64,000 nucleotides of DNA from Roseateles sp. XES5 (GTDB lineage Bacteria; Pseudomonadota; Alphaproteobacteria; Rhizobiales; Rhizobiaceae): assembly GCF_020535545.1 (NCBI RefSeq), contig NZ_CP084752.1, forward strand, positions 2,197,501-2,261,500, read 5' to 3'. Under the pieces are notes generated by a model. It was given only the letters and a program-made list of their open reading frames with translations. It searched no databases and was not told the origin of the DNA. The position numbers were made by a program, and so were the translations under genes. Position 1 is the first letter of the stretch, and every line of letters begins with the position of its first letter. Of the stretch, positions 17,228-63,973 are shown piece after piece.

Positions 17228-17989
17228 ATGACGATGAAGGTTTTGGTCCCTGTCAAACGCGTGGTCGACTACAACGTCAAGGTGCGCGTCAAGAGCGACG
17301 GCACCGGCGTGGACATCGCCAATGTGAAGATGTCGATGAACCCCTTTGACGAGATCGCCGTCGAAGAGGCCGTGCGCCTGAAGGAGAAGGGCGTGGTCAC
17401 CGAGGTGATCGCCGTGTCCTGCGGCGTGACCCAGTGCCAGGAAACCCTGCGCACCGCCATGGCCATCGGCGCCGACCGCGCCATCCTGGTGGAGACCCCC
17501 GCTGACCTCGAGCTGCAGCCCCTGGCCGTGGCCAAGCTGCTGAAGGCCCTGGTGGACAAGGAACAGCCCCAGCTGGTGATCCTGGGCAAGCAGGCCATCG
17601 ACGACGATTGCAACCAGACCGGCCAGATGCTGGCCGCCCTGGCCGGCCTGCCGCAAGGCACCTTCGCCTCCAAGGTCGAGATCGTGGACGGCAAGGCGAA
17701 CGTCACCCGCGAGGTGGACGGCGGCCTGGAAACCGTGGCCCTGAGCCTGCCGGCCGTGGTCACCACCGACCTGCGCCTGAACGAGCCGCGCTACGTCACC
17801 CTGCCCAACATCATGAAGGCCAAGAAGAAGCCGCTGGACAAGAAGGTGCCGGCCGATTTCGGCGTCGATACCGCCGCGCGCCTGAAGGTGCTGAAGACCG
17901 AGGAGCCGTCGGGCCGCAAGGCCGGCGTCAAGGTCAAGACGGTCGCCGAGCTGGTCGAAAAGCTCAAGACCGAAGCCGGCGTGCTTTGA
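17228..17989 (+). CDS. etfB: electron-transfer flavoprotein beta subunit (mosaic gene)
   Basis: A 253-residue EtfB that pairs with EtfA to carry electrons from dehydrogenases, here probably the N-demethylases, to the ubiquinone pool. The family landmarks [18 protein letters not shown] and the C-terminal signature region [20 protein letters not shown] are present. The gene is oddly built: up to about 17845 both the protein ([38 protein letters not shown]) and the codons look betaproteobacterial (20 of 22 leucines CTG by my count). The last 50 codons are rhizobial. The neighbouring etfA has only 9 CTG among 30 leucines. Start by GGAGG at about 17220-17224; ATG 17234 is an alternative. Confidence 0.9.
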
Positions 17990-18016
17990 TCCGGAAGATT
18001 TGAGGAGATTACGAAC

Positions 18017-18946
18017 ATGGCCATTCTTCTTCTGGCAGACCACGACAACGCTCACCTTTCCGACCAGACCGCCAAGGCGCTGACGGCAGCCAAGCAGATC
18101 GGCTCCGACGTGCATGTGCTCGTCGCCGGCGCGGGTGCGAAGGCCGCGGCCGAACAGGCCGCCAAGCTCTCGGGCGTCTCCAAGGTCCTGCTCGCCGACG
18201 ATGCAAGCCTTGCCAACAACCTCGCCGAACCGCTGGCGGCGCTCATCGTGTCGCTCGCCGGTTCCTATGACGCTATCGTCTCGGCTGCGACCTCGGTCGG
18301 CAAGAACGTTCTGCCGCGCGTTGCCGCGCTGCTCGACGTCGCGCAGGTCTCGGAGATCATCGAGGTCGTCTCGGCCGATACGTTCAAGCGTCCGATCTAT
18401 GCGGGCAATGCCATCCAGACGGTTCAGTCCACCGACGCCAAGAAGGTGATCACGGTGCGCACGGCGTCCTTCGCCGCAGCAGGCGAGGGCGGCAGCGCCC
18501 CGGTCGAGACCATCCCGGCTGCAGCGAACCCCGGCCTTTCCAGCCACGTCAAGGATGCACTCTCCTCGTCCGACCGTCCGGAACTGACGTCGGCGAAGAT
18601 CATCATCTCGGGCGGCCGCGCGCTCGGCTCTTCGGAAAAGTTCCAGGAAGTGATCCTTCCGGTCGCCGACAAGCTGGGTGCTGCCGTCGGCGCAAGCCGC
18701 GCCGCTGTCGATGCGGGTTATGCGCCGAACGACTGGCAGGTCGGCCAGACGGGCAAGGTGGTCGCACCGCAGCTCTACATCGCCTGCGGCATCTCGGGCG
18801 CGATCCAGCATCTTGCCGGCATGAAGGACAGCAAGGTCATCGTCGCCATCAACAAGGACGAGGAAGCCCCGATCTTCCAGGTCGCAGACTACGGCCTCGT
18901 CGGCGATCTCTTCGAGATCCTGCCGGAGCTCGAAAAGGCACTCTAG
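18017..18946 (+). CDS. etfA: electron-transfer flavoprotein alpha subunit
   Basis: A 309-residue EtfA. The N-terminal domain begins [10 protein letters not shown]. The C-terminal FAD-binding domain holds the family signature in [20 protein letters not shown] and [22 protein letters not shown]. It forms the FAD-containing heterodimer with EtfB and lies 27 bp after it with an AGGAG ribosome site. The codon pattern is the ordinary mixed rhizobial one throughout, unlike etfB. The stop codon TAG lies inside the edge of a RIME-type repeat that follows. In this operon it would re-oxidise StcD and possibly the other demethylase. Confidence 0.93.
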
Positions 18947-19027
18947 AGTTTGTCAGGGAAAAGTGGGAACCGGTTTTCCCGAAAAGACAAACGAAAACAA
19001 AAGAATCTAGAGCATGTCATGCTCTAG
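18942..19027 (+). repeat. RIME-type intergenic repeat, short copy
   Basis: This element (CTAGAGTTTGTCAGGGAAAA, then a GGGAACCGGTTTTCCC palindrome, GACAAACGAAAACAAAAGAA, and a closing AGAGCATGTCATGCTCT hairpin) matches the reverse complement of 32951-33055 almost base for base over its first 75 positions. It lacks about 20 bp of the terminal hairpin present there. Form and sequence fit the Rhizobium-specific intergenic mosaic element. It overlaps the etfA stop codon. Confidence 0.85.
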
Positions 19028-19052
19028 GTTCCTGAAAAATAAGGATTCGATC

Positions 19053-20180
<1,128 letters not shown>

Positions 20181-20361
20181 GCGCCCATTGAAGCGCGCCT
20201 GCATTGCCATCCAGTCGTTGCGCCGCTGCGTCATGACGTATTGGCGGCGCGATGGATGGATGGTGTGCGCGCGTTTGAGGGAGACCTCGGCCTGATGGGC
20301 GACATTGCCCCCTGGAGGGCAGAGAACCCTGCTCAGCGGTTCGGGTTCTTCCGGCCGCAAT

Positions 20362-21711
20362 TCACTCGACAAGTCTCTGGGGATTTGGCTCTCGGTAAGC
20401 GAAGGCTTTCGGTAGGGCCGGCGGTTGGCGGTGGCCCTCCACCCAGCCGGCGACATGGCTGCGCAGGGAGAAGGCCATGATCAGGAATGTGTAGATGCCA
20501 AGCGACGTCGAGCGCCCCAGTTCGTTTTCGACCAGGTTTCCGAACATGAACATGTTGAGCAGCGCGAAGGCGAGCATCGTGATACGCGTGCGGATGCTGC
20601 CGATGGAAATCAACACCAGCAGGTAGAGCCCGAGGAATCCGGCGACGAAGAGCGTGAAGCCGATCACACCGGTTTCGATGAAGAGGGTGATATAGCCGTT
20701 GTGGAAGTTGTCGAGCTCCCAGGTATAGATGTCCTGAAACGCCGTCAGCCGTTCCGGCGTCCAGAAGCTGTCCATGCCGAAGCCGGCAAGGAAGCGGCCG
20801 CGCATATGCTCGAAGCCGAATTGCCACAGCTTCATGCGGCTGTTGGTGTCGATGGTCAGCCCCAAGACGCTCAGCTTGTCCCCGTCGGCTGAAAACGAGG
20901 CCAGCACGAGGAAAACGAGGGGAATGCAGAGGGCCACGCCGATCAAAAGCGATGCCCGCTGTGCGGTGCGCGGCAGGCGGGCAATCATCAGCGAGCCAAG
21001 GCCGATGCCGATCAGCAGCAACCCGCCCCGCGAGCCGGATTTGTACAGCGCGACAAGGCAGAGGACGACGACGGCGATGCGCAGGCACAGCGCCGCGGTC
21101 TGGCGCAGCGGCGTCGAGCGCAGGGCGAGTGGCAGGCCCGTGCCGAGCACGCTGGCATAGGCCGCATAGGCGGCGAGCCCGTTCTTCTGGCCTGCAATAC
21201 CGCGCCACTTGCCGGCGTGCTCCCAGGATTGGTCGACGCCGACCGAGGGCCAGAGAAACACCACCGCGACACAAACCGCGATATAGGTGGCGAGCGCGTA
21301 GAAAAGGATCGCCAGCGACCGTTCCAGCGGCAGCATGTTGGCGATGCTGAGCGAGGTCACCAGCGCGGTCAGCACCAGCAGGCTCTTGATATAGCTGCCC
21401 GGCAGTTGAGACCCCCAAAGCGCCGACGCGGCATAGAACAGGAAGAACAGCGCAAGCAGCGTCGTTTCGATGCCGACGGGAATGCGCAGGCCCGCGCGGA
21501 TATAGGCAAGGAGAGCGATGGCGAAGGCCAGCGTGATGAAGGCGAGATAGCGGGCCGGTTCCACCCAGGCCGGAACCGCCAGTTCGCTGCTCGGCACCGC
21601 CATGGACAGGAAACCCAGGAAATACAGCGCGAGGCTTGTCACCCTTTGAAGCATGGTTGCGACCGTGAGGCTTTCTGTTCGGGCGGGAACGGATGGCGAA
21701 CCGCCTGACAT
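20362..21711 (-). CDS. O-antigen ligase/polymerase-like membrane protein (ExoQ/Wzy type)
   Basis: A 449-residue polytopic protein with roughly ten or more hydrophobic segments and a long periplasmic loop in the C-terminal half containing the sequence around GFGMDSFWTPERLTAFQDIY. That layout and the loop's FGxG...H/N features (DNFHNGYITLFIETGVIG) are typical of the Wzy_C / O-antigen ligase family, including ExoQ. It would polymerise or ligate lipid-linked oligosaccharide in the inner membrane. It is divergent from a Wzz/ExoP-like gene across about 100 bp, so the pair probably serves one exopolysaccharide. The sugar repeat cannot be told. Confidence 0.75.
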   Translation of the reverse strand: MSGGSPSVPARTESLTVATMLQRVTSLALYFLGFLSMAVPSSELAVPAWVEPARYLAFITLAFAIALLAYIRAGLRIPVGIETTLLALFFLFYAASALWGSQLPGSYIKSLLVLTALVTSLSIANMLPLERSLAILFYALATYIAVCVAVVFLWPSVGVDQSWEHAGKWRGIAGQKNGLAAYAAYASVLGTGLPLALRSTPLRQTAALCLRIAVVVLCLVALYKSGSRGGLLLIGIGLGSLMIARLPRTAQRASLLIGVALCIPLVFLVLASFSADGDKLSVLGLTIDTNSRMKLWQFGFEHMRGRFLAGFGMDSFWTPERLTAFQDIYTWELDNFHNGYITLFIETGVIGFTLFVAGFLGLYLLVLISIGSIRTRITMLAFALLNMFMFGNLVENELGRSTSLGIYTFLIMAFSLRSHVAGWVEGHRQPPALPKAFAYREPNPQRLVE

Positions 21712-21761
21712 GAACTCTTAAGCATGTGCGTTAAGATTTGATGGACAAGTCCGTCCTAACT

Positions 21762-21781
21762 AATCTTTAAGTTTAAAGATT
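21762..21781. promoter_or_regulatory. 20-bp palindrome in the polysaccharide divergent promoter
   Basis: AATCTTTAA-GT-TTAAAGATT has perfect 9-bp arms and lies midway between the two divergent polysaccharide genes. A related half-site TTAAGATT occurs at 21731-21738. It looks like an operator; no candidate regulator gene is adjacent. Confidence 0.5.
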
Positions 21782-21815
21782 CAAATAATACACGCATTGC
21801 AAGAGTGATTTGGCC

Positions 21816-23384
21816 ATGCAGAACGGACCCGATATGCGCAAATATGCCACCTACCGTGCGGAAACCCCGGCGGATCAGGGCCTCGCGAACTATCTGCAGA
21901 TCGACCTCAAGCGACTCGCCTATTGGCTGCGCATAAAATACAGCTGGATCATCATGGTTGCAATCGTCGGTTCGCTGATCGGTGCGGGCTACAGCCTGCT
22001 TGCGACCCGGAGCTATACCGTGACAAGCGAGATTCTGGTCGATCCCGCCGGCCTGCAGGTGGTTGACGACGATCTTTATCGGCGCAGCGAGGATCGCGAT
22101 ACGCAGCTTCTCAACGTTGACAGCAAGCTCCAGACGCTGTTGTCGCGCAATGTGCTCATGCGCGTGGTCGAGAAACTCGAGCTCACCCGCGACCGGGAAT
22201 TCGTGCCGAAATCCTGGACCAGCCTCTTCAGCTTCAATTTCAGCTTCGGCCTCGGATCCGAGGTCGTGACGCCACCCGAGGTGATTGCGCTGGATGCGCT
22301 GGACCGGCGTGTTTCCGCCCGCCGCGACGAGCGCTCCTTCGTCATCATTCTGACCGTCTGGTCGGATGAGGCGGAAAAAAGCGTGCGCATTTCGAAGGCC
22401 TTGATCGACGAGTTTCGAACCGAGTTGAGCGTCGCCGATTCCGATGGGGCGGGGCGGGCGACCTCCTCGCTCGTCGGCCGGCTGGTGGAATTGAAAGCCA
22501 GCGTGACCGAGGCCGAAGAGGCCGTCGAAACCTTTCGCCGGCAGAATGGCCTGCGCGTCAGCCAGGGGGAATTGTCGAGCAGCCGCTCGATGTCGCAGGT
22601 CGATACGCAGTTGCGCACGGCGCGCGAGCGGTTGATCGCGGCCGAATCCCGCTACAGGCAATTGATGGCGGGCAGCAGCGATTCGGCCGTCATGCAGTCG
22701 ACGACGCTCGCCTCGCTGCGCACCGAGTTCGCCTCCGCCAAGCAGCAGGCCGAGCAATATGCCGTCGTCTACGGCACGCTGCATCCACGCTACAGGGGCG
22801 TGCAGCTCAACGTGAAGACGCTGGAGCGCGAAATCCAGAACGAGACGGCGCGCCTGACGCGCGCTGCTGAAAATGAATACGCCCAGGCGAAGACCGTCGT
22901 GGCCGAGCTTCAGAAGGAAGCCTCCTCCGTCTCGGGCGACGTGTTTTCAGAGAACGAGGCCGAGGTGAAGTTGCGGGAGCTGACACGCGAGGCGGCGGCG
23001 CGGAGCGCCATCTACGAAGCCTTTCTGGCGCGGGCACGTCTAACCGCGGAGCGCGAACAACTTGACACGACCAATATCCGCGTCATCTCCGCCCCCATTG
23101 TGCCGCGCACCCGCGGCTGGCCGCCGAGCGTGCCGCAGGCGTCGATGTTCGGCCTGCTCGCCGGTCTCGCGCTCGGCATTGTCGGCGTGCTTGCATATGG
23201 CATCGTGTCCGATATCCACCATGCGCCGGCGCCCGCCGTAACGCGCACGGTACAGGAGGAGCGGCCCCGCCCGTCGCGCCGACGTCATCTCCGCGATGAG
23301 ATGACGTCCTTGCTCAATGCCGAATTCGCCGATGACGAGGACTATCTCCCCATGCCGCGGCGCCGCAAGACAGATTACGTGTAA
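21816..23384 (+). CDS. Wzz/GumC-like chain-length determinant protein
   Basis: A 522-residue polysaccharide co-polymerase. A cytoplasmic N-terminus is followed by a first transmembrane segment (WIIMVAIVGSLIGAGYSLLA, about residues 47-66). Then comes a long periplasmic region rich in coiled coil (roughly 200-400) and a second segment (FGLLAGLALGIVGVLAYGIV) after the PRTRGWPPSVP proline-rich motif. The C-terminal tail is short, basic and without Walker motifs, so the tyrosine-kinase half of ExoP/Wzc is absent. It would set chain length for the polymer made with the divergent Wzy-like protein. ATG 21816 is used; an in-frame TTG lies two codons upstream. Confidence 0.8.
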   Translation: MQNGPDMRKYATYRAETPADQGLANYLQIDLKRLAYWLRIKYSWIIMVAIVGSLIGAGYSLLATRSYTVTSEILVDPAGLQVVDDDLYRRSEDRDTQLLNVDSKLQTLLSRNVLMRVVEKLELTRDREFVPKSWTSLFSFNFSFGLGSEVVTPPEVIALDALDRRVSARRDERSFVIILTVWSDEAEKSVRISKALIDEFRTELSVADSDGAGRATSSLVGRLVELKASVTEAEEAVETFRRQNGLRVSQGELSSSRSMSQVDTQLRTARERLIAAESRYRQLMAGSSDSAVMQSTTLASLRTEFASAKQQAEQYAVVYGTLHPRYRGVQLNVKTLEREIQNETARLTRAAENEYAQAKTVVAELQKEASSVSGDVFSENEAEVKLRELTREAAARSAIYEAFLARARLTAEREQLDTTNIRVISAPIVPRTRGWPPSVPQASMFGLLAGLALGIVGVLAYGIVSDIHHAPAPAVTRTVQEERPRPSRRRHLRDEMTSLLNAEFADDEDYLPMPRRRKTDYV

Positions 23385-23481
23385 CACCCGCCGCGCGCCG
23401 GAAAATCCTCCATACTCGCGAGGCAGGCAATCGCCGTGGATCACAAGGCTTGCAATCCGACAGGGGCCCCGGTGCAAATCC

Positions 23482-24570: not shown

Positions 24571-24576
24571 GAGGGT

Positions 24577-24600
24577 GCCGGCCGCTTCGCTTCGGCCGGC
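24577..24600. terminator. bidirectional hairpin between two convergent genes
   Basis: GCCGGCCG (24577-24584) and CGGCCGGC (24593-24600) form a perfect 8-bp stem around CTTCGCTT. It sits in the 36-bp gap between the stop codons of the acyltransferase and mutase genes. No T-run follows in either direction, so it may stop RNA only partly. Confidence 0.5.
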
Positions 24601-24606
24601 CCGAGG

Positions 24607-26732
24607 TCACTGGTTGCGGATACGTCCTTCCACCAGATCGAGCACCGTATTGGCGGCATCGAGCACGTTGGTGCCGGGGCCGAAGACGGCGGCGACGCCG
24701 TTTTCGAGAAGGAACTCGTAGTCCTGCCGCGGAATGACGCCGCCGACGACGACCACGATATTCTCCGCCCCGCGCTCCCGCAGGGCCGCCACCAGCGCCG
24801 GAGCCAGCGTCTTGTGCCCGGCGGCCAGGGAGGACATGCCGACGACCTGCACCTTCTCCGCGACGGCAAGGTCCGCGGCCTCCTCGGGCGTCTGGAAGAG
24901 CGGGCCGACCCGCACCTCGAAGCCAAGATCGCCGAAGGCGGAGGCGATGACCTTGGCGCCGCGGTCATGGCCGTCCTGGCCGAGTTTCGCCACCATGATC
25001 TTCGGCCTGGTGTCGCGCGCCGCGATGCGGCCGGCAAGGGTCCGGTATTCCGGATCGTCGCCATAGGCGGGGCCGTAGATATCGCCCACCACTTCTGGCG
25101 TTGCGGCATGGTCGCCGAAGGCGCGGCGCATGGCGTCGGAAATCTCGCCTACCGTGGCACGGGCCCGTGCGGCCGCGACAGCCGCTTCGAGGAGATTGCC
25201 CTCACCGGTCCTGGCGACCGTTTCGAGCGCGCCGAGCGTTTCGGCGACCTCGGTTGCGCTGCGCCGGCGACGGATATCCTCCAGCTGCTTGATCTGCGCG
25301 GCACGGACCGCGCTGTTGTCGATTTCGAGAATGTCGATCGGCTGCTCGTCCTCGAGGCGATAGCGGTTGACGCCGACGATCACCTCGTCGCCGCGGTCGA
25401 CGGCGGCCTGCCGGCGCGTGGCAGCCTCTTCGATCAGGCGCTTCGGCAGGCCCTCGATGACGGCCTGGGTCATGCCGCCCATGGCATCGACCTCCTCGAT
25501 GATGGACCAGGCCTTGTCCGCCATGTCCTGCGTCAGCTTCTCCATCATGTAGCTGCCGGCCCAGGGGTCCACCACATTGGTGATATGGGTCTCTTCCTGG
25601 ATGATGAGCTGGGTGTTGCGCGCGATGCGGGCGCTGAACTCGGTGGGCAGGGCGATGGCCTCGTCCAGCGAGTTGGTGTGCAGGCTCTGGGTGCCGCCAA
25701 AGACCGCGGCCATGGCCTCGATGGTGGTGCGCACCACATTGTTGTAGGGGTCCTGCTCGGTGAGCGACCAGCCCGAGGTCTGGCTGTGGGTGCGCAGCAT
25801 CAGGCTCTTGGGGTTCTTGGCATTGAAGCCCTTCATGATCCGGCACCAGAGCAGGCGCGCGGCCCGCATCTTGGCGATCTCCAGATAGAAGTTCATGCCC
25901 ACGGCCCAGAAGAAGGAAAGCCGGCCGGCGAAGTCGTCCACGTCCATGCCCTTGGCGATGGCCGTCTTCACATACTCCTTGCCATCGGCCAGGGTGAAGG
26001 CCAGCTCCAGGGCCTGGTTGGCGCCCGCCTCCTGCATGTGATAGCCCGAGATCGAGATCGAGTTGAACTTCGGCATGTTCTTCGCCGTGTACTCGATGAT
26101 GTCGCCGATGATCTTCATCGAGGGCTCGGGCGGGTAGATATAGGTGTTGCGGACCATGAACTCCTTGAGGATGTCGTTCTGGATGGTCCCGCTGAGCTTG
26201 TCCTGCGACACGCCCTGCTCTTCCGCCGCCACCACATAGCCGGCCAGCACCGGCAGCACCGCGCCGTTCATGGTCATGGAGACCGAGACCTTGTCCAGCG
26301 GAATGCCGTCGAACAGGATCTTCATGTCCTCCACCGAGTCGATGGCCACGCCGGCCTTGCCCACATCGCCGGTCACGCGGGGATGGTCGCTGTCATAGCC
26401 GCGGTGGGTGGCCAGGTCGAAGGCCACCGACACGCCCTGCCCGCCCGCGGCCAGGGCCTTGCGGTAGAAGGCATTGCTCTCCTCGGCGGTGGAGAAGCCG
26501 GCGTACTGGCGGATGGTCCAGGGCCGCACCGCGTACATGGTGGCCTGGGGGCCGCGCAGAAAGGGCTCGAAGCCCGGCAGCGTACCGAGATGGCTGGCCT
26601 CCGCAAGGTCGTCCGCCGTATAGACGGGTTTGACGGCGATGCCTTCGGGCGTGTTCCAGGTCAGCGTTTCCGGGGCGGCGCGCAGCTCCTTTTCAGCGAG
26701 TGCTGCCCAGTCCTCAAACGTCTTGTCGGCCA

Positions 26733-26736
<4 letters not shown>
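24607..26736 (-). CDS. scpA: methylmalonyl-CoA mutase (mosaic gene)
   Basis: A 709-residue adenosylcobalamin enzyme that interconverts methylmalonyl-CoA and succinyl-CoA (bhbA in S. meliloti). The N-terminal barrel contains [11 protein letters not shown] and [16 protein letters not shown]. The C-terminal B12 domain shows D-x-H-x2-G as DGHDRGAK, plus [11 protein letters not shown]. Its ATG overlaps the pccA stop as ATGA. From about 25480 to 26570 the protein ([60 protein letters not shown]) and codons look betaproteobacterial, while both ends are rhizobial. Function should be unaffected because the active site is shared, but the gene's origin is in doubt. Confidence 0.93.
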
Positions 26737-28736
<2,000 letters not shown>

Positions 28737-28761
28737 CAGGTGTCTTCCAGTCCCGGTCACT

Positions 28762-29052
28762 TCAATCTTTGTATTTCTTCTCATAGGGCATCAGCAGGAT
28801 GGCCGAGGCGGTGGCCGCCCCGCCGAACAGCGCGGCGAAGGGCACGACGAGCAGAAGCACGGGCATGACGGGGTTTTCCGCCCGGGCGATGCGCGTGCCG
28901 ATGCCGCCGATGTCGAGCACGATGAGGAGGGCGGCGGTCGCAGAGCCGATCAGCCCGCCGACCAGCGCATGCAGCATCATGTAGCGCAGCATGCGCCAGT
29001 GATCCTTGCGTGCCTCCTCCGGCGTCAGCGCCGGCTTTTCGTGCCTCCCCAT
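28762..29052 (-). CDS. small two-helix membrane protein in the pcc operon
   Basis: A 96-residue protein with a charged N-terminus (MGRHEKPALTPEEARKDHWR), two hydrophobic stretches of about 20-25 residues (around 26-47 and 63-88) and a short basic tail ending EKKYKD. I do not recognise a named family. It lies between pccB and pccA, 9 bp after pccB and 25 bp before pccA, so it is co-transcribed with the propionate genes. A conserved position of such an ORF in rhizobial pcc operons is my recollection rather than something seen here. A membrane anchor or transport accessory role is possible but unproven. Confidence 0.7.
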   Translation of the reverse strand: MGRHEKPALTPEEARKDHWRMLRYMMLHALVGGLIGSATAALLIVLDIGGIGTRIARAENPVMPVLLLVVPFAALFGGAATASAILLMPYEKKYKD

Positions 29053-29061
29053 GCGCCTGCC

Positions 29062-30594
<1,533 letters not shown>

Positions 30595-30711
30595 GGTGTC
30601 CGTCCGTTGCTGGCCAGCCGGGCCGCTTTCGCGCCCGGACATCGATCCTGCTTAGTGCCGATAGGCATGGAAATGAACACTTGATCGGGTGGACATGCAA
30701 GCGTTACACTT

Positions 30712-30740: not shown

Positions 30741-30741
30741 C

Positions 30742-32169: not shown

Positions 32170-32173
32170 CCCG

Positions 32174-32950: not shown

Positions 32951-33055
32951 CTAGAGCATGTCAGGTTCATATTGAACCAGACATGCTCTAAATTCTTTTG
33001 TTTTCGTTTGTCTGTTCGGGAAAACCGGTTCCCACTTTTCCCTGACAAACTCTAG
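32951..33055 (-). repeat. RIME-type intergenic repeat, full copy
   Basis: Read on the minus strand this is the same element as 18942-19027: CTAGAGTTTGTCAGGGAAAA, a GGGAACCGGTTTTCCC palindrome, then GACAAACGAAAACAAAAGAA. It ends with a longer hairpin, AGAGCATGTC...GACATGCTCT, enclosing GGTTCAATATGAACC. Two nested palindromes of this kind characterise RIME elements of Rhizobiaceae. It overlaps the stop codon of the adjacent amidohydrolase gene. Confidence 0.85.
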
Positions 33056-37513: not shown

Positions 37514-38479
37514 ATGCTCAGACTTTTCTCGGTGCGGCTCTTCCAGGCCATCCTCGTGATGATCGCCGTGACCGCCATTGCCTTCGTCATGTTCCGCTTC
37601 GTCGGCGATCCCGTCGCCTCCATGGTGCGCGAGGGCGCAACACAGGCGGAAAAGGATGCCCTGCGTGTCGCGCTCGGCCTCGACAAGCCGATCCTCGTTC
37701 AATTCTTCGACTTTCTCGGCCAGGTGCTGACGGGCGATCTCGGCACGAGCTTCCGTTACCAGCAGCCGGTCGTCAGCCTGCTCATGAGCCGCCTTCCGGC
37801 GACGCTCGAACTGGTGATCGTCGCGACCTTCCTGGCGTTGGCCATCGGCATTCCGCTCGGCGTGCTCTGCGCGCTGAAGCCCAATTCCGTGCTGTCGCGG
37901 CTCACGCAGTCGGCGACGCTGATCGGCATTTCCATGCCCACTTTCGTCACGGGTCTGCTGCTCATCCTGGTCTTCGCCGTCAATCTGCGCTGGCTGCCCT
38001 CGTCGGGCCGCGGTGACCTCGTCGATCTCGGCTTCTGGAAGACAGGCTTCCTGACGCTTTCGGGCCTCAAGTCGCTGATCCTGCCGGCCATCACGCTCTC
38101 GGTCTTCCAGCTCACCCTGATCATGCGCCTGGTGCGCGCCGAGATGCTGGAGGTGCTGCGCACCGACTACATCAAGTTCGCCCGTGCCCGCGGCCTGAGC
38201 AATCGCGCCGTCTACTTCGGCCATGCGCTCAAGAACACCCTGGTGCCGGTGATCACCATCACGGGTCTGCAGCTGGGTTCGCTGATCGCTTTTGCCATCA
38301 TCACCGAGACGGTGTTCCAGTGGCCGGGCATGGGCCTGCTCTTCACCAATGCGGTCGGCTATCCCGACGTGCCGGTGCTGGCCGCCTACCTGCTCTTCGT
38401 CGGCTTCCTGTTCGTCATGATCAACATGGTCGTCGACATTCTCTACACCTTCATCGATCCGCGCCTGAGGACCCGATAA
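37514..38479 (+). CDS. dipeptide-type ABC importer permease, DppB-like
   Basis: A 321-residue permease. The N-terminus RLFQAILVMIAVTAIAFVMF is the first of about six transmembrane helices, and the DppB hallmarks DLGTSFRYQQPVVSLL and EMLEVLRTDYIKFARARGLS (the EAA coupling loop) are present. It pairs with the next gene to form the channel for the binding protein encoded 154 bp upstream. The stretch 38125-38345 has a run of CTG/GTG codons resembling the foreign-looking tracts elsewhere, though the protein itself is unremarkable. It overlaps the next gene as TAATG. Confidence 0.88.
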   Translation: MLRLFSVRLFQAILVMIAVTAIAFVMFRFVGDPVASMVREGATQAEKDALRVALGLDKPILVQFFDFLGQVLTGDLGTSFRYQQPVVSLLMSRLPATLELVIVATFLALAIGIPLGVLCALKPNSVLSRLTQSATLIGISMPTFVTGLLLILVFAVNLRWLPSSGRGDLVDLGFWKTGFLTLSGLKSLILPAITLSVFQLTLIMRLVRAEMLEVLRTDYIKFARARGLSNRAVYFGHALKNTLVPVITITGLQLGSLIAFAIITETVFQWPGMGLLFTNAVGYPDVPVLAAYLLFVGFLFVMINMVVDILYTFIDPRLRTR

Positions 38480-39376: not shown

Positions 39377-41095
39377 ATGACCGAAACAACGACCCCCGTT
39401 CTCGACATCCGCAAGCTGCGCGTCGAATATCCGCTGGCGAGCGGCGATACGCTCGTTGCCGTGAAGGACATCGATCTTCTCATCCGTCCCGGTGAAATCC
39501 ATGCGCTGGTCGGCGAATCCGGCGCCGGCAAGACCACGGTCGGCAATGCGCTGATGGGTCTGCTGCAAGCCCCCGGCAAGATCGTCTCCGGTTCCATCGA
39601 GATCGCCGGCAAGCCGATCGACCTGCGCACCGGGCGCACCGAGGGCATCGTGCCCGGCCGCGATGTCGGCGCGATCTTCCAGGATCCGATGACGAGCCTC
39701 ACCCCGCTCTTCACCGTGGAAAACCAGCTCTGCGAAGGCATGCTCGCCCATCTCAAGCTGTCCCGGTCGGATGCGAAGGCCCGCGCGCTGGAACTGATGA
39801 AGGCGGTCGGCATTCCCGAGCCGGAGCGCCGGCTCGGCAGCTATCCGCACCAGCTTTCCGGCGGCCAGCGCCAGCGCGTCGTCATCGCCACGGCACTTGC
39901 ATGCAGCCCGCAGCTCATCGTCTGCGACGAACCCACCTCGGCGCTGGATGTGTCGGTGCAGGCGCAGATCCTCAATCTGCTGCGCGAACTGCAGAGCGAG
40001 CGCGGCGTCGGTGTGCTGCTCGTCACGCACAATATGGGCGTCGTTGCCGAGATCGCCGATCGCGTCACCATCATGCAGAACGGCGCCGTGGTGGAAAGCG
40101 GCTCTGCCCGCGATGTGCTGACCAATCCGCAGGCTCCCTATGCCCGTACCCTGATCGCGGCCGTGCCGCCGATCGAACATCGCCTCGAGCGCCTGCCGGT
40201 GCCGAGCGAGGAAACTGCGGTGACGCTGGACGCCCGTGCGACCGTGCGCCGCAAGAGCACGAAAAGCGAGACGGGCAGCAAGGACGATATCGTGCTTTCC
40301 GTGCGCGATCTCGCCGTGGAATATGGCGGCCGCTCGTTGATCCCCGGCCGCAAGGCGTCCGTCTTCAAGGCGGTGAAGGGCGTTTCTTTCGATGTCCGCC
40401 GCGGCGAGATCTTCGGTCTCGTCGGCGAATCCGGCTGCGGCAAGACCACCGTCGCCAACACCATTGCCGGCCTCGTCACGCAAAGCTCCGGCAGCATCGA
40501 TTTCCAGGGCACGGCGCTCGGTGCAAGGCGCGAAAAGTCCGTTCGCCAGTCCTTGCAGATGGTGTTCCAGGATCCTTACTCCGCGCTCAACCCGCGCCTG
40601 CGCATCAATTCCGCCATTGCCGAGCCGATCCTATTCTACAGGCTCGCCTCGAATGCGGACGAGGCCCGGCAGGACGCGAAGACGCTGCTCGAAGCGGTCG
40701 GCCTGCCGGCCGATGCGGGCGCGCGCTTCTCGCACGCCTTCTCCGGCGGCCAGCGCCAGCGCATCTCCATCGCGCGCGCCCTGGCCACCCAGCCCGAGTT
40801 CCTGGTCTGCGACGAGCCGACTTCGGCCCTGGACGTGTCGGTGCAGGCCCAGGTGCTCAACATCATGAAGGACCTGCGTGACCTTGCCGGTCTCTCCATG
40901 CTGTTCATCAGCCACGATCTCGCGGTGATCCGCCAGATGTGCGACCGCATCGCGGTGATGAAGTCGGGCGAGATCGTCGAGCTCGCGGACACCGAAACGC
41001 TCTTCACCGCGCCCAAGCACAACTATACCAAGGAGCTTCTGCGCCTCGCGCCCTCGCTCGACCGTATCCTGTCGCGGCAGACCGCCGCGCAATAG
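39377..41095 (+). CDS. fused double ATPase of the dipeptide-type importer (DppD-DppF in one chain)
   Basis: A 572-residue protein with two complete nucleotide-binding domains. The first has Walker [10 protein letters not shown], signature LSGGQRQR and [10 protein letters not shown]. The second has [17 protein letters not shown] and a second [10 protein letters not shown]. Most Opp/Dpp systems encode the two as separate genes; this single-chain form is the GsiA/YejF arrangement. It would energise the permease pair just upstream. The second signature region (about 40770-40880) has a short run of CTG-only leucines. It is followed after 14 bp by an amidohydrolase gene in the same operon. Confidence 0.92.
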
Positions 41096-50983: not shown

Positions 50984-51023
50984 GCGGCGGTCAGGGGCCT
51001 TTTTATGCTGCAACTGCGAACAA

Positions 51024-51168: not shown

Positions 51169-51181
51169 GTGGGAGGAGATC

Positions 51182-52201: not shown

Positions 52202-52230
52202 AACAGGAGGGAAAATTCGTGGAGGAAAAC

Positions 52231-53241: not shown

Positions 53242-53316
53242 TCCGGCAAACCGTCAGCCGGCCGGGAGGATTTCCTTCCGGCCGGAACCGTCCGGCGTGG
53301 AAACGCGCCGGTCAGC

Positions 53317-55916: not shown

Positions 55917-55940
55917 CCCCCACTTTCGGAGGAAACCAAA

Positions 55941-56942: not shown

Positions 56943-56946
56943 GGCC

Positions 56947-57594: not shown

Positions 57595-58174
57595 GGCGTC
57601 GCCTGTCCAGAAGCGGGGCTTCATGACGCGGCCCCGGATCGCGCCTCCTGCAAAGCACGGGTGGCGCGGTCATGGACCCGTTGCTGTCTTCCCCTCGGTG
57701 CGGCCTTCGCTGCAAGCCGTCTGCGGCGCCTTCGCCGATGTCGCGGCCGCGACGGCTGCTCTCGCTTTTTGTTCTTACCGCATTGTCCGACGCCGAAGCG
57801 ATCCCGCTTCGGCTGGAAATGCTTGGGGATCGACGAACCGGCGGGCGGCGACAGGACCGCAAGGCATGAAAAACGCGTCCGCTCTTTCGAGAGCCTTGAG
57901 GCCAGCATGCGCGCCGCACAACAGTTTTGAGCAATCCACCTTCGTGTCGTTCCAAGCTGTTGATATTGCTCGCTTTGAAAGCAATGCACCATTTGCATAG
58001 CTGCACTGCACAATAAATGTTTTCCATCTGATCAAAAAACGACCATAGTGCACACAGCTGATGCACATGGCGGCTTTTTCCTCCCAGTGCCGCCGCACCA
58101 GCTGTTCCCCTCTGGAGGTTTTAGACCTTCACACCTTATGGGCCGCGGTTTTCGCCGGCCCATTTTTTTTGCCT
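57595..58174. other. 580-bp gap after dhaL, no recognisable gene
   Basis: Several short open frames exist on both strands but none has a family resemblance, a convincing ribosome site or rhizobial codon rhythm. The last 190 bp are AT-richer (TGCACAATAAATGTTTTCCA around 58007-58026) and contain pyrimidine-rich runs TTTTTCCTCCC and CCCCTC before a strong terminator. That could be a small RNA gene rather than protein-coding sequence. Confidence 0.5.
58138..58170 (+). terminator. strong Rho-independent terminator, plus strand
   Basis: ATGGGCCG (58138-58145) and CGGCCCAT (58156-58163) form an 8-bp stem followed by a run of T to 58170. It is 544 bp beyond the dhaL stop and points away from the minus-strand gene that begins to its right, so it may end a separate small transcript. 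Confidence 0.8.
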
Positions 58175-59212
58175 TCAGGTTTCCTCGTGCGGCTGCCGCC
58201 GATGCTCGGCAAGGCGCAAGGCGCCGCTTTCCTCAAGAAAACCGGCAAGGTGGGGCGCTAACCGGCTTTCGTTGCCGGCGGCCTGCCGGATCGAGACTTC
58301 CGCGTCCTCCGCAGCAGCAAGAGCATCGACGGCCGCGAGGAAGGCGTTCGTCCGGTGCTGGTCCGCAAGACCGATCTGTGCGCCGTCGATGGCGCGGCCG
58401 GCTTCGGCAAGCATCGCGCCTGCCGCCGCCAGCCGGGCGGAGAGGCGTCCGGCCGTACCGGGATGGCAGGCTGGATCGTCCCAAAGGGCGTGAAGCGCGT
58501 GGCGCGCGGTGCCGAGCCGGCAGGCGGCTTGCAGCAACAGGTCCAGCGCGCGCGGCACGGCATGGGCACCTGCTTCGCCGATGGGGTGCAGCAGGGCATC
58601 GCCATCGACAAGCACATCCTCGAACAGCACCTGGTTCTCGCCGGGGTAACGCAGCGCTTCGCCATGGGCGGGAAGCAGCAGGCCGGCCGTTTTCATGTCC
58701 TGCCGAACGGGCACGAGCAGCCAGTCGGCATGCCGGGCATGGGGCGTCGACAGCGCCGTGCCCGACAGACGCCAGCCAAGGCCGCTCGGCAGGAAGGCCA
58801 GAACGCTCGTCTCGCCGGCGAAGGCGCGCGCCAGTCGGGCGCCGGCAAGGATCGCGGAAAAGACGATGCTGCGCTGGCTGTCGCTGCCCTGGCTGCGGAC
58901 ATGCTCCACGCCGACGAAATGGCCGGCAAGAATGCGCCCGAGCGTTTCGGACTGCGCGGACGCGATGGCACAGACTTCGGCAAGAACGGTGTTGGAGACG
59001 TCGATCCCGCCCTGTTCCGTGGGAACGGAAATGCCGAAAAGGCCGGAGCGGGAGAGAAGGTCCAATCGTGTTTCGATGGCGTCTGCCGCCATCGCTGCGG
59101 GAAGGGCAAAGACGCCGGCAAGCGAACCGGCCACCGTGACGGCTTCATCCTCGGTCGCGATGAGGGCGGCCGTTCGTGTCGCGCGGCTCTGCGCGGTAGA
59201 AAGAGAACCCAT
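58175..59212 (-). CDS. acyl-CoA dehydrogenase-like flavoprotein (SfnB/DszC-type)
   Basis: A 345-residue protein of the acyl-CoA dehydrogenase fold in the branch that includes SfnB and flavin-dependent sulfur-compound monooxygenases. The N-terminal helical domain has LLSRSGLFGISVPTEQGGID, the middle contains GHFVGVEHVRSQG, and the C-terminal helices end EESGALRLAEHRRQPHEE. It is shorter than typical members (about 390-410), mainly in the middle beta domain. It is divergent from two FAD proteins and an Rrf2 regulator, next to a sulfate-binding protein, so a role in obtaining sulfur from organosulfur compounds is likely. The exact reaction is unknown. Confidence 0.7.
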   Translation of the reverse strand: MGSLSTAQSRATRTAALIATEDEAVTVAGSLAGVFALPAAMAADAIETRLDLLSRSGLFGISVPTEQGGIDVSNTVLAEVCAIASAQSETLGRILAGHFVGVEHVRSQGSDSQRSIVFSAILAGARLARAFAGETSVLAFLPSGLGWRLSGTALSTPHARHADWLLVPVRQDMKTAGLLLPAHGEALRYPGENQVLFEDVLVDGDALLHPIGEAGAHAVPRALDLLLQAACRLGTARHALHALWDDPACHPGTAGRLSARLAAAGAMLAEAGRAIDGAQIGLADQHRTNAFLAAVDALAAAEDAEVSIRQAAGNESRLAPHLAGFLEESGALRLAEHRRQPHEET

Positions 59213-59518
59213 GTCGTCTGCTCCTTGTGGAATGCGGTTCCAGGGCGCATAGGCATTGTCGGGCTAGAGAGATCACATTCTATAGAGATTGTATAGATTG
59301 CTTGGCAAATCCCGCCACGGCACGGGCGGGTGCAGCCCGGTTCATTCCCGGCGCTCGTCGGCCATTCTAGAGAAAGGCGCGGCCTGTGAAAAGAAGGATG
59401 CGGGAACTGCCGTCGACCCGACGGCGTTGAGGCGGCGGAGTGGCTAAAAATAGTCTATAGATTTTATGGATAACTAGGGCTAGGCTGCTCCATCGCATCC
59501 TCTCAGGGAGGGACTGGC
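59213..59518. promoter_or_regulatory. divergent promoter of the organosulfur block
   Basis: This 306-bp gap holds two similar AT-rich elements, TTCTATAGAGATTGTATAG (59278-59296) near the minus-strand gene and AGTCTATAGATTTTAT (59452-59467) near the plus-strand gene. A looser relative, TTCTCTAGGGTTTTA, lies upstream of sbp near 62904-62918. They are candidates for the linked Rrf2-type regulator. No coding signal is seen. Confidence 0.45.
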
Positions 59519-60868
59519 ATGACGATGCATGCGGATGTGGCCGTCATCGGCTCCGGCTTCTCGGCCGTCGCGCTTTCGCTTAACCTCCTCGACCTCATGC
59601 CTGCATCGGCGCAGGTGAGCCTTGTGGGGCCTGAGGCCGGGCTTGGAAGAGGCATTGCCTATTCGACCCGAAACGAGGCGCTGCTCCTCAACGTTCCCGC
59701 CGGCCGCATGGGGCTTTTCGCCGACCGCCCCGACCATTTCGTGGCATGGCTGAAGGAGAACGGCTTGCGCGCCGGGCCCGATGACTTCGTTCCCCGCCGG
59801 GTCTATGGCGATTACATTGCCGATTGCCTTCAGGCCGCGCGCCGGCGAACGGGCAACCGCCCGGCGCTGACCGTCGTCGACACGGTCGCCCTCGGTGCGG
59901 AGGCCACGCAGGACGGCGGCTTGCTCTTCCACCTGTCGAATGGCGAGCGCCTTTCGTCGCCTTTCGCGGCCCTGTGCACCGGCGCTGGAACACGGCGACT
60001 TCCACTCGAAACGGTGCCTGACGCGACCCGCCCCTTCGTTGTCGATGACCCCTGGGCGGAGGCCTGGTGGGAGCGTTTGCCGATGGAAGGCGACGTGCTC
60101 CTCGTCGGCACCGGCCTGACCATGGTCGACCAGTGTCTCGTTCTGGCGGAGCGGGGCTTCAAGGGGAGGATTCACGCCGTGTCGCGCCACGGCCTCCTGC
60201 CGCAGGCGCATCTCGACCGCCGCGCCGACCCGGTGCCGACCATGCTGGCGCCGGATGGCGGCGAGGTCAGCCAGATGCTTTTCGCCCTGCGCCGCGCCGC
60301 CGGGGGCGTGCCGGACTGGCGCGCCGTCATGGACGGGCTCCGGCCCGTCACGCAGGCGCTCTGGAAGGCCTGGAGCCCGGAGCGGCGCGCGCGGTTCCTC
60401 CGCCATGCCAGCGCTTACTGGAATGTCCATCGCCACCGCATGGCGCCCGCCGTTGCGAAACGGATCGCCGCGCTCCGCGACGGCGGCCGCCTGATCGTCC
60501 ATCGCGGGCGTCTCGGTGGTCTCAGGCTTGAGGGCGCCGGGCTGGCCGCCGATATCGTCGGCCGGGAGAAGACAAGCGTCGCGGCGGCCATGGTCGTCAA
60601 CTGCACGGGGTTCGACCGATGTACGGTGGAGGCCTCGCCGCTACTGTCGAGCCTTGCCGCGCAAGGCGTTCTGTGTGCCGACCCGCGGGGCCTCGGCATT
60701 GTGGTGGACGAGGGATCGGCCGTTCCCTCGGGTGCAGACCGGCCCCGGCTCTATGCATTGGGACCGCTGACGGCGGGACGGCATTTCGAGATCACCGCCG
60801 TTCCCGACATCCGTCAGCAGGCGCTTTCCGTCGCCAGGGCCATCAGCGCCGCGGTTGCCTGCGGATGA
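59519..60868 (+). CDS. FAD/NAD(P)-binding protein of the NAD_binding_9 type (first)
   Basis: A 449-residue flavoprotein. The N-terminal dinucleotide motif is DVAVIGSGFSAVALSLNLL. A second nucleotide-binding stretch is VLLVGTGLTMVDQCLVLAER (around residue 194), and the C-terminal FAD-closing segment is RLYALGPLTAGRHFEIT. It resembles YdhS-like FAD proteins of unknown reaction. Its stop overlaps the Rrf2 start as ATGA, and a paralogue follows two genes later. Position beside SfnB-like and sulfate-binding genes suggests a redox step in sulfonate or sulfone use; this is inference. Confidence 0.78.
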   Translation: MTMHADVAVIGSGFSAVALSLNLLDLMPASAQVSLVGPEAGLGRGIAYSTRNEALLLNVPAGRMGLFADRPDHFVAWLKENGLRAGPDDFVPRRVYGDYIADCLQAARRRTGNRPALTVVDTVALGAEATQDGGLLFHLSNGERLSSPFAALCTGAGTRRLPLETVPDATRPFVVDDPWAEAWWERLPMEGDVLLVGTGLTMVDQCLVLAERGFKGRIHAVSRHGLLPQAHLDRRADPVPTMLAPDGGEVSQMLFALRRAAGGVPDWRAVMDGLRPVTQALWKAWSPERRARFLRHASAYWNVHRHRMAPAVAKRIAALRDGGRLIVHRGRLGGLRLEGAGLAADIVGREKTSVAAAMVVNCTGFDRCTVEASPLLSSLAAQGVLCADPRGLGIVVDEGSAVPSGADRPRLYALGPLTAGRHFEITAVPDIRQQALSVARAISAAVACG

Positions 60869-61323
60869 GAAGCGCGCCGTCTGCCGGCATTCTGTCGCAG
60901 AAATCCAGATATGCCTTGCAGGCCCTTCTGGTGCTTGCCCGCGCTGGTCCGGGGCAGACCCTGCGGATCGGGGTCATTGCCGAAGGGGAGGCCATCCCCA
61001 AGAAGTTCCTCGAACAGATCCTGCTCGACCTGAAGCGCGCCGGCATCGTGGACAGCCGCCGCGGGCAAAAGGGCGGTTATCTGCTGTTGCGGCGCCCGCA
61101 GGCGGTTTCATTGGGCGACGTGCTGCGCGCGACGGATGGTACACCGCTGCCAGCCGCCAGCCGTGCCGGCGAGAATGCCGCTTCCCATGCATTGAGCCGG
61201 GTCTTCGCGCGCGTTGCGGCCGCGTCGGCGAAAATCCTCGACGGGACGACGCTGGCAGACGTGCTTTCGGAAGCGTCGGGGCAGGGGGATTCGCGCCCAT
61301 CGATTATTCTAGTAAAAAGGTAG
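60865..61323 (+). CDS. Rrf2-family regulator lacking cysteines
   Basis: A 152-residue Rrf2 protein. The winged helix is LSQKSRYALQALLVLARAG, then IPKKFLEQILLDLKRAGIVD and the wing SRRGQKGGYLL. Iron-sulfur-sensing members (IscR, NsrR, RirA) have three cysteines in the C-terminal half; this one has no cysteine at all, like the CymR/CysR type that senses sulfur status by protein partner or ligand. It overlaps the preceding FAD gene by 4 bp and precedes the second FAD gene by 67 bp. It is the natural regulator of this sulfur block. Confidence 0.85.
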   Translation: MRSAPSAGILSQKSRYALQALLVLARAGPGQTLRIGVIAEGEAIPKKFLEQILLDLKRAGIVDSRRGQKGGYLLLRRPQAVSLGDVLRATDGTPLPAASRAGENAASHALSRVFARVAAASAKILDGTTLADVLSEASGQGDSRPSIILVKR

Positions 61324-61390
61324 AAAATTATCCGGCGGTGCGCTATTCTCCCGCCGGTGTCTTCCTCCATCTTGCAGGAAAGGATGGGCC

Positions 61391-62722
61391 ATGGACCTTG
61401 AAGCTGCAAAAGGGGAAACGGCAAGAGGACCGGCAACCGCGCCGGGGTGCACGCTCCCGCCTGTCAGGATTGCGGTCGTCGGTGCGGGTCCTTCCGGCCT
61501 CGCCACCGTGATTGCCCTGATGCGGCGGTTCCATCGGCCCTTCGAGGCCTGGATGATCGATGCCGAGGACGCGCCCGGCGCCTTCGGCGACGGTCCTTCC
61601 GGCCGGGCGCTGACAAGCGAACCCGCCCGCGACCTTTCCCTCCTGCCCGACAGGCCCGACGATTTCACTCGCTGGCTGAAGGACAATTTCCTCTCGGGTG
61701 GAACCGTGACGGCCCTGCGCGGTCCGCAGGATCTGCATGCGCCGCGCGCCTTGTTTCGCGATTATGGCATGGCCCGTTTCGGCGAGGCGCTCGCCCTTCG
61801 CCGCGACGTGTGCATCCGCACCGTCAGCGCCACCGTCCGTCATATAGGCCTCGATGCCGGCGGGGTGCGCCTTGCCTTCCGTGCAGGGGAAAGCGCGCAT
61901 TTCGACCATGTCTTCGTGGCCACCGGCTTCGGCTTCGCCCAACGCGAGGCCGCATCCTGGCAGGAGGCGGCGGCGGTGGCGGAACGGCTGTCCCGGCAGG
62001 AAAACCCGCCGCCGCTGACCCTTGTCGGCAACGGGCCGCGCCTTGCCGCCATCCTGCTCGATCTCAGGGCGCGCGGCTTTGCGGGCGCCATTCACGTCGC
62101 GGCGGCGGCCGGCCGTCTGCCGCAGCCGCATGGGCGCGGCTTCGGCGGGATGGTCTTCGGTGAGCCGCCGACGAGCCGGTCGCTGCGCGATGCCTTCCAC
62201 TACGTCCGGCAGGAATGTAGCAGCGCGGAGGCGCGGGACGGTGGCCAGTGGCAAACCGTCGTCGATGCCGCCTCCGCACGGCTTTCTGTGGTCTGGCGCA
62301 ACCTGCCCCAGGCCGAGCGCAACCAGTATCGCCGCCATCTCCTGCGCCTGCACCGCCATTTCTCCATTCGCATCGCCGGCGACGTCCATCGCCGCCTTGC
62401 CGCGGAATTCGAGACCGGCCGCACCCGCTTCGTGCCGCCCTGCGATCCGAAGACGGCGGATGGAAATACCATCGACTGCCGGGAAGCCCCCGCCGCGCGT
62501 GCGCTTGCCGGTCTGCTCGGCTGCGATGTCGCCACGCTTTCCGTCGACGATTGCGGCCGTCTGCTCGGCCATGGCCGGATCGTCGATGGCCTTTCCGTCG
62601 TCGGGGCGGTCGCCTCGGGTCTCCGGCCCGGCCCCTTCACCTTCGCCGAGACGGTGCGTCAGACCTATCGCAGCGTGCTCTCTGCACCGCTGTCCGGTTC
62701 GGCGCGGCTCTCTCGCGGCTGA
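61391..62722 (+). CDS. FAD/NAD(P)-binding protein of the NAD_binding_9 type (second)
   Basis: A 443-residue paralogue of the protein encoded at 59519. The FAD motif is VRIAVVGAGPSGLATVIALM (residues 24-43). Shared features are SEPARDLSLLPDRPDDFTRW near the N-terminus (compare LLLNVPAGRMGLFADRPDHF in the first) and PLTLVGNGPRLAAILLDLRA as the second nucleotide site. AGGAAAGG precedes ATG 61391. Having two such proteins flank the regulator suggests they act together or on related substrates. The reaction is unknown. Confidence 0.78.
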   Translation: MDLEAAKGETARGPATAPGCTLPPVRIAVVGAGPSGLATVIALMRRFHRPFEAWMIDAEDAPGAFGDGPSGRALTSEPARDLSLLPDRPDDFTRWLKDNFLSGGTVTALRGPQDLHAPRALFRDYGMARFGEALALRRDVCIRTVSATVRHIGLDAGGVRLAFRAGESAHFDHVFVATGFGFAQREAASWQEAAAVAERLSRQENPPPLTLVGNGPRLAAILLDLRARGFAGAIHVAAAAGRLPQPHGRGFGGMVFGEPPTSRSLRDAFHYVRQECSSAEARDGGQWQTVVDAASARLSVVWRNLPQAERNQYRRHLLRLHRHFSIRIAGDVHRRLAAEFETGRTRFVPPCDPKTADGNTIDCREAPAARALAGLLGCDVATLSVDDCGRLLGHGRIVDGLSVVGAVASGLRPGPFTFAETVRQTYRSVLSAPLSGSARLSRG

Positions 62723-62947
62723 AAAAAGTTCATCGGGCCGGCGAAAAGAGGCGATTTTTCGCGGATGCATTTTGCGTTTCCGCATCCCTTTTCGAGATGA
62801 ACTGTGCGCTTTTTGCCGGGAGGGGCAGTGCGCGCATTGCGCCGATATCCCTCGTTTGGAACCGGTTTTGCGAACTTTCCGGCCATTGTTGACTAAGTCT
62901 ACTAATTCTCTAGGGTTTTAATCGAGGCAGTGACCAGGAGGTTGGAG

Positions 62948-63973
62948 ATGTCGACAATAGGAAAACGCATCGGGGCTTTGGCCCTCGGTTTGGGGCTGGT
63001 GTTCAGCGGGATTTCGGGGGCGATGGCGGAGACGACGCTGCTCAATGTCTCCTACGACCCGACGCGCGAGCTCTACCAGGACTACAACGCCGCCTTCATC
63101 AAGCACTGGAAGGCCAAGACCGGCGAGAGCCTCACGGTCAAGCAGTCGCACGGCGGCTCGGGCAAGCAGGCCCGCTCGGTGATCGACGGCCTGGAGGCCG
63201 ATGTGGTGACCCTGGCCCTGGCCTATGACATCGACGCCCTGCACGACACCGCCAAGCTGCTGCCGGTGGACTGGCAGAAGCGCCTGCCCCACAACGCCTC
63301 GCCCTACACCTCCACCATCGTCTTCCTGGTGCGCAAGGGCAATCCGAAGAAGATCACGAACTGGCCCGACCTGGCCCGCAGCGGCGTGGAGGTGATCACC
63401 CCCAATCCCAAGACCTCGGGCGGCGCGCGCTGGAACTATCTGGCGGCCTGGGCCTGGGCGAACCAGGAATTCGGCGGCGACCAGGACAAGATCAAGGCTT
63501 ACATCGCCGAGCTCTACAAGCGGGCGCCGGTGCTGGATACGGGCGCACGCGGCTCGCTGACCACCTTCGCCCAGCGCCAGATCGGCGACGTTCTACTCGC
63601 CTGGGAGAACGAAGCCTATCTCGCCGGTGCGGAATTCGGTGCCGACGCCTTCGATATCGTGGCTCCGCCGATTTCGATCCTTGCCGAACCGCCGGTCACG
63701 ATCGTCGACGGCAATGTCGATGCCAAGGGCACGCGCAAGCAGGCGGAAGCCTATCTCAACTACCTCTATTCGGAAGAAGGCCAGAACATCGCGGCCAAGC
63801 ACTTCTACCGTCCCTCCAAGCGCGAGGTGGTAAAGCCGGAGTTGCTGCAACAGCTTCCCGATATTAAGCTGGTGACGATCGACGACCCGATCTTCGGCGG
63901 CTGGGCAAAGGCACAGCCCGAGCATTTCGGTGACGGCGGCGTCTTCGACCAGATCTACAAGCCGGGGAACTGA
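62948..63973 (+). CDS. sbp: sulfate-binding protein (mosaic gene)
   Basis: A 341-residue periplasmic sulfate/thiosulfate-binding protein. A signal peptide ([20 protein letters not shown]) precedes [20 protein letters not shown]. Ligand-contact blocks [20 protein letters not shown] and [20 protein letters not shown] are intact. AGGAGG seven bases upstream fixes ATG 62948. The tract from about 63165 to 63470 has only CTG leucines (10 of 10 in the codons I counted to 63455), while the flanks use CTC, TTG and CTG. It would supply the membrane transporter whose first gene seems to start at 63979. Confidence 0.92.

What the first reader, a model, noticed from the sequence alone, without database searches (positions are those of the whole stretch)
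17234..63470. Recurrent betaproteobacterial-looking tracts inside conserved genes of a rhizobial window
At least five genes spread over 46 kb (etfB, mutase, pccA, pccB, sbp; weaker signs in two importer genes) contain internal stretches of 0.3-1.1 kb with almost exclusively CTG leucines and GTG-rich valines. In etfB, the mutase, pccA and pccB the residues also look Burkholderiales-like; the flanks of all five genes and all other genes look rhizobial. The tracts sit where the two classes are most alike and keep the reading frame. That pattern fits a chimeric assembly or a consensus polished with reads of a co-cultured betaproteobacterium better than six independent gene conversions, but real homologous replacement is not excluded.
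Basis: partly seen in the sequence, partly recalled or inferred. Interest (0 to 1): 0.82.

Follow-up and report, generated by a model that had tools for sequence, protein, structure and literature searches.

The report
Foreign reads polished into a genome
Conserved genes of this Shinella genome, its 23S ribosomal RNA included, carry patches matching a Roseateles-like bacterium of another class, and the pattern points to an error of sequence assembly or polishing rather than to real DNA of the organism.

Summary
The window lies in a Shinella genome. Tracts in etfB, scpA (mutase), pccA, pccB, sbp and two oligopeptide-importer genes match Roseateles asaccharophilus DSM 25082 at 87.4-97.6% nucleotide identity and Shinella relatives at 73.4-88.1%; flanks are ordinary Shinella. 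Most of the 23S rRNA (670-3109) is Roseateles-type too, 99.4%. Elsewhere tuf, fusA and rpsL are patched.

Five facts favour a consensus artefact over gene conversion. (1) Replacement rises with local Shinella-Roseateles similarity. (2) In the 23S tract 13 of 15 short indels (1-14 nt) follow Roseateles and none follows Shinella, yet about 100 nt of extra Roseateles sequence is missing and the Shinella version stands. (3) The three rrn copies have different tract edges. (4) Only one of three etfBA copies is patched. (5) At 32 of 38 tract ends fewer than 20 nt separate the diagnostic bases. Polishing with mixed-species reads is a published cause of such damage in rRNA (PMC9600527).

Verdict: not a biological feature, but a warning about a genome rated 100% complete, 0.15% contaminated. 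Raw reads were not available.

The parts
670..1857 (+). 23S rRNA, first Roseateles-type block
   Evidence: 99.1% Roseateles, 77% Shinella; 23S identified by Rfam
1858..1949 (+). 23S rRNA, island that stayed Shinella-type where Roseateles has about 100 nt more
   Evidence: 94.6-100% Shinella, 56.5% Roseateles
1950..3109 (+). 23S rRNA, second Roseateles-type block
   Evidence: 99.8% Roseateles, about 80% Shinella
17240..17836 (+). etfB tract (electron transfer flavoprotein beta subunit)
   Evidence: 96.6% Roseateles; 74% to the two other etfBA copies of the genome, which match the window copy 100% just downstream; Pfam ETF
25483..26583 (-). methylmalonyl-CoA mutase (scpA) tract; segments 25483-26373 and 26425-26583
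   Evidence: 97.6 and 96.9% Roseateles; Pfam MM_CoA_mutase
27682..28260 (-). pccA tract; segments 27682-27748 and 27813-28260
   Evidence: 95.5 and 90.4% Roseateles DSM 25082; longer segment 91.9% to Mitsuaria sp. WAJ17
29170..29730 (-). pccB tract 1
   Evidence: 97.0% Roseateles
29766..29945 (-). Shinella-type island between the two pccB tracts
   Evidence: 92.1% to Shinella L190; diagnostic-base map
29951..30544 (-). pccB tract 2
   Evidence: 96.6% Roseateles
38087..38300 (+). short tract in an importer permease gene
   Evidence: 93.0% Roseateles, 74.8% Shinella; Pfam BPD_transp_1
40766..40865 (+). short tract in an importer ATPase gene
   Evidence: 97.0% Roseateles, 80.0% Shinella; Pfam ABC_tran, oligo_HPY
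63211..63409 (+). tract in a solute-binding protein gene
   Evidence: 87.4% Roseateles DSM 25082, 73.4% Shinella; Pfam SBP_bac_11

Best explanation
The sequence held is a consensus error. Reads of a Roseateles-like bacterium in the same sample or library aligned to conserved parts of the Shinella contigs, and a consensus or polishing step with permissive alignment replaced the Shinella bases there. Replacement took in substitutions and short indels, stopped where homology fell off or a long indel broke the alignment, and hit some copies of a repeat more than others. Shown here: donor group, tract limits, dependence on similarity, the indel rule in 23S, unequal repeat copies, occurrence in other sampled regions. 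Inferred: that reads caused it, which step did it, and that the donor was in the sample.
For: Sharp switches between Shinella-type and Roseateles-type bases. 23S rRNA patched in all three rrn copies. Indels of 1-14 nt follow Roseateles in 13 of 15 cases, the about 100 nt insertion does not. The C1:1705633 rrn copy is Shinella-type at 20 of 20 differing sites between 1773 and 1855, where the window copy is Roseateles-type at 19 of 20. One of three etfBA copies patched. Roseateles share rises from 0.05 to about 0.5 with local similarity in protein genes. tuf, fusA and rpsL patched. 17 codon segments of score >=10 in 58 sampled regions, none of score >=8 in 8 regions of other Shinella. Published precedent for rRNA (PMC9600527, passages).
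Against: No reads were seen. A crude model of strict short-read mapping explains only 11-16% of the Roseateles-type bases; a permissive one explains 80% at specificity 0.85. About half of the protein-gene windows at 75-90% similarity are not patched, and 9 of 465 windows below 65% are. Native etfB is only 74% like Roseateles in the tract, low for read mapping. Identity to DSM 25082 varies from 87 to 99%, so the donor is not that strain and there may be more than one. The other-Shinella control is small: at this genome's rate about 4 segments of score >=8 would be expected there.
Confidence: 0.9

Rival explanations
1. Assembly-stage chimerism: Shinella and Roseateles reads were merged while the contig was built, so that the draft itself switches source at shared sequence, with no later polishing step to blame.
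For: Gives collinear tracts in conserved genes as well; some ends do lie in longer shared stretches (6 of 38 ends with 20 nt or more).
Against: Most ends have fewer than 20 nt between diagnostic bases (32 of 38), too short for usual k-mer joins (k-mer lengths recalled). The retained long indel inside 23S fits base-wise correction better.
Confidence: 0.07
2. Real interclass homologous replacement: a Shinella cell took up Roseateles DNA and recombined it into many conserved genes very recently.
For: Tracts are in frame and collinear and the hybrid proteins keep their Pfam domains.
Against: Donor and recipient are only 74% alike in etfB; ends lack long identical runs; rrn copies have different edges; the long donor insertion in 23S was not inherited; universal genes are hit in several separate pieces each.
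Confidence: 0.015
3. Native sequence: codon preference of well-expressed genes and strong conservation only look betaproteobacterial.
For: Some tracts lie in genes that may be well expressed.
Against: Ribosomal protein genes of this genome do not prefer GTG; 96.7-98.7% identity to Roseateles over 300-nt slices and the rRNA tract cannot come from codon preference.
Confidence: 0.005

Closest known systems
Polishing of long-read metagenomic genomes with mixed-species reads (Baker 2022, mSystems, PMC9600527; abstract, outline and passages seen)
   Same: Reads of other species map to conserved regions, rRNA above all, and the polisher (Medaka, Pilon there) writes their bases into the genome.
   Different: There the damage described is in rRNA operons, with about two dozen mismatches in 16S after Pilon; here whole tracts of 0.1-1.2 kb are replaced, also in protein genes, by one donor group.
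Homologous recombination between related bacteria (general knowledge)
   Same: Collinear, in-frame tracts from a donor in conserved genes.
   Different: Donor of another class, mostly short shared runs at the ends, short indels taken but not the long one, rrn copies with different edges.

Membership tests
Consensus artefact from cross-mapped foreign reads | Foreign bases confined to stretches similar between the two organisms | tested here: met
   Share rises with similarity, though about half of the similar protein-gene windows are unpatched
Consensus artefact from cross-mapped foreign reads | rRNA operons affected | tested here: met
   23S 99.4% Roseateles-type over 670-3109
Consensus artefact from cross-mapped foreign reads | Short indels replaced, long ones not | tested here: met
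   23S only
Consensus artefact from cross-mapped foreign reads | Unequal patching of repeat copies | tested here: met
   rrn, etfBA
Consensus artefact from cross-mapped foreign reads | Tracts reproduced by a read-mapping model | tested here: inconclusive
   Strict 11-16% covered, permissive 80%
Consensus artefact from cross-mapped foreign reads | Mixed alleles or clipped reads at tract edges; donor reads in the sample | not testable with these tools
   No raw reads
Homologous recombination tract | Long identical run at one end at least | tested here: not met
   Met by few tracts: 6 of 38 ends with 20 nt or more
Homologous recombination tract | Donor indel state inherited throughout | tested here: not met
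   Long insertion of the donor absent in 23S
Homologous recombination tract | rrn copies homogenised | tested here: not met

The most novel reading that the evidence does not exclude
A living Shinella has undergone very recent, genome-wide replacement of conserved gene segments by Roseateles DNA, with chimeric 23S rRNA, EF-Tu, EF-G and S12, across only about 74-85% similarity.
Probability: 0.015. Interest if true: 0.97.

Novelty: not a real feature. Interest (0 to 1): 0.25.

Why it matters
A genome listed here as 100% complete and 0.15% contaminated has foreign patches inside conserved genes, the genes used for phylogeny, 23S identification and horizontal-transfer scans. Those scores evidently did not show it. 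The signature (foreign tracts in conserved stretches, short indels replaced but a long one not, unequal repeat copies) could serve as a screen for other genomes. If the mosaic were real, it would overturn ideas on the similarity needed for recombination.

Tried and rejected
Native codon preference: rejected, since ribosomal protein genes do not prefer GTG and rRNA is affected.

Simple end-to-end contig chimera: rejected, since the flanks continue and the scpA-pccA-pccB cassette is found as one alignment of about 6 kb at 78-83% in 7 of 20 same-genus genomes and in named Shinella plasmids.

Contaminated Roseateles reference: not indicated; the two halves of its mutase are 89.6 and 87.6% to the nearest other Burkholderiales held. 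Other genes of the reference were not checked.

Strict short-read mapping as the only mechanism: does not reproduce the tracts.

Not resolved: the codon segment L186:8527-9060 has no strong counterpart in DSM 25082, and L319:2210-8956 sits in a giant ORF and may be native; both are counted among the 17. Window 3701-13000 was not compared with Roseateles; the codon scan shows nothing of score >=6 there.

Paper searches for a source study or a Shinella-Roseateles culture gave nothing usable; one search gave nothing relevant.

Full report
Setting. The window is G000:C1:2197501-2261500 of a 5.81 Mb genome in 6 contigs, completeness 100, contamination 0.15. By the propionate cassette its nearest named relatives are Shinella: S. 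zoogloeoides NZ_CP132313.1 (82.7%) and NZ_CP086612.1 (82.3%), Shinella sp. WSC3-e and others at 78%. Two same-genus genomes have contigs of the same length as those two plasmids, so the genus is taken as Shinella. No call gave the species of G000 itself.

Is the observation there? Yes. In 19 control regions CTG makes 43.4% of Leu and GTG 36.3% of Val; the five tracts are far above that. A scan for such segments gives 5 of score >=10 in the window and 4 in 20 control regions, against 0.03 per window from random redraws. In 58 regions of this genome (300,589 codons) there are 17; in 8 regions of other Shinella (44,916 codons) there is none of score >=8, where this genome's rate would give about 4; the Roseateles locus L078 has 13 of score >=10 in 5,127 codons. 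The window was chosen by a reader for this feature, and the 8 regions lie around conserved operons, so neither is a random sample.

Is it foreign? Yes. Slices of 300 nt through the cassette switch from Shinella-like (86.3-91.6%) to Roseateles asaccharophilus DSM 25082 (L078; 96.7-98.7% in five slices) and back. One sequence in that script's Shinella set, L011, is from another genus of the family. Diagnostic-base maps show sharp switches. Segmentation gives 11 tract segments in the parts of the window compared and 9 in three further regions. Identity to Roseateles: mutase 97.6 and 96.9%, pccB 97.0 and 96.6%, etfB 96.6%, pccA 95.5 and 90.4%, permease 93.0%, ATPase 97.0%, sbp 87.4%, 23S 99.4%. 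The longer pccA segment is slightly closer to Mitsuaria sp. WAJ17 (91.9%). So the donor is near, but not the same as, DSM 25082, or there is more than one donor. Gene order differs: in Roseateles mutase, pccB, pccA; in the window pccB, pccA, mutase in the direction of transcription, so one long replacement cannot explain the three genes.

23S rRNA. A search with window 1-3700 found Roseateles at 96-98% over 626-1857 and 1950-3223 and Shinella at 80-87% over various parts of the gene. The alignment gives: 416-669 93-95% Shinella; 670-1857 99.1% Roseateles; 1858-1949 94.6-100% Shinella; 1950-3109 99.8% Roseateles; 3110-3227 99-100% Shinella. Inside the tract and outside the island there are 15 gap blocks of 1-14 nt: 13 follow Roseateles, none follows Shinella, and two (5 nt at 804, 1 nt at 2534) match neither. 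Where Roseateles has 101 nt more, in four blocks at 1861-1949, the Shinella version stands. All three rrn copies are mosaic, but the copy at C1:1705633 is Shinella-type at 20 of 20 differing sites from 1773 to 1855, just before the long indel, where the window copy is Roseateles-type at 19 of 20. The 5-nt gap is in the window copy only, the 1-nt gap in two copies, and the third copy has 3 extra nt near 760. Real rrn copies are expected to be homogenised, and a recombination tract should carry the donor's insertion.

Universal genes. In the S10/str region (L170), 94% identical to other Shinella over 14-17 kb, tuf, fusA and rpsL carry Roseateles-type tracts, in tuf and fusA with native stretches between them.

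Repeat copies. The genome holds two further etfBA copies. They are 99.8% identical to each other in the tract region and 74% to Roseateles there. The window copy is 100% identical to both in the last 150 nt of etfB and 94-95% in etfA, but 74% in the tract, where it is 96.7% Roseateles. One copy of three was patched.

What decides where. In 101-nt windows of protein genes the mean Roseateles share of diagnostic bases is 0.05 (below 65% Shinella-Roseateles identity), 0.15, 0.30, 0.48, 0.52 and 0.53 (85-90%, 22 windows). It does not reach 1 except in a single window above 90%, and 9 of 465 windows below 65% are patched, so similarity matters but does not decide alone; read depth is my guess for the rest. 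At 32 of 38 measurable ends fewer than 20 nt lie between the last native-type and the first Roseateles-type diagnostic base; I left out one end without a flank and one beside a long unaligned stretch. Some inner ends (mutase, pccA) may be donor differences rather than true ends. Crossovers or k-mer joins would prefer long identical runs.

Which step. A crude ungapped model of 150-nt donor reads with strict short-read scoring covers 11-16% of the Roseateles-type bases at specificity 0.98-0.99; a permissive scoring covers 80% at 0.85. The model uses relatives in place of the lost native sequence. I recall, from no call, that the permissive values resemble settings for mapping noisy long reads. 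So a consensus step with permissive mapping is a better guess than default short-read polishing.

Known precedent. Baker 2022 (PMC9600527; abstract, outline and passages seen) reports that metagenomic reads of other species map to conserved rRNA regions and that Medaka and Pilon polishing then wrote errors there. In the Polypolish paper (PMC8812927; passages seen) the passages concern repeats, not foreign reads. I saw no report of tracts on this scale in protein genes; the searches were in an open-access library, mostly seen as listings.

Verdict. The remaining doubt is that raw reads were not seen.

Noticed in passing
18943-19019 and 32980-33055: A repeated element of about 76 nt, found at 31 or more other places in this genome (one of them the second coordinate) and in other Shinella at up to 99% identity; the first copy folds better than 200 of 200 shuffles, z -4.23.
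   Followed up: partly
17234-18945 and 19041-20180: etfBA is present in three copies, and the gene after it in three copies at 92-94% identity, in the same genome.
   Followed up: partly
24607-30642: The scpA-pccA-pccB cassette is on the chromosome here but on plasmids in named Shinella and on large replicons of Sinorhizobium.
   Followed up: no
58056-58167: An ar15 alphaproteobacterial small RNA, above its Rfam threshold.
   Followed up: no
L319:464-12535: A giant open reading frame of about 4,000 codons with a long GTG-rich stretch.
   Followed up: no
L321:17463-19767: The strongest codon tract of the sample (CTG 50/53, GTG 36/47, score 45.0) with a second one beside it, on the second contig; donor not checked.
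   Followed up: no
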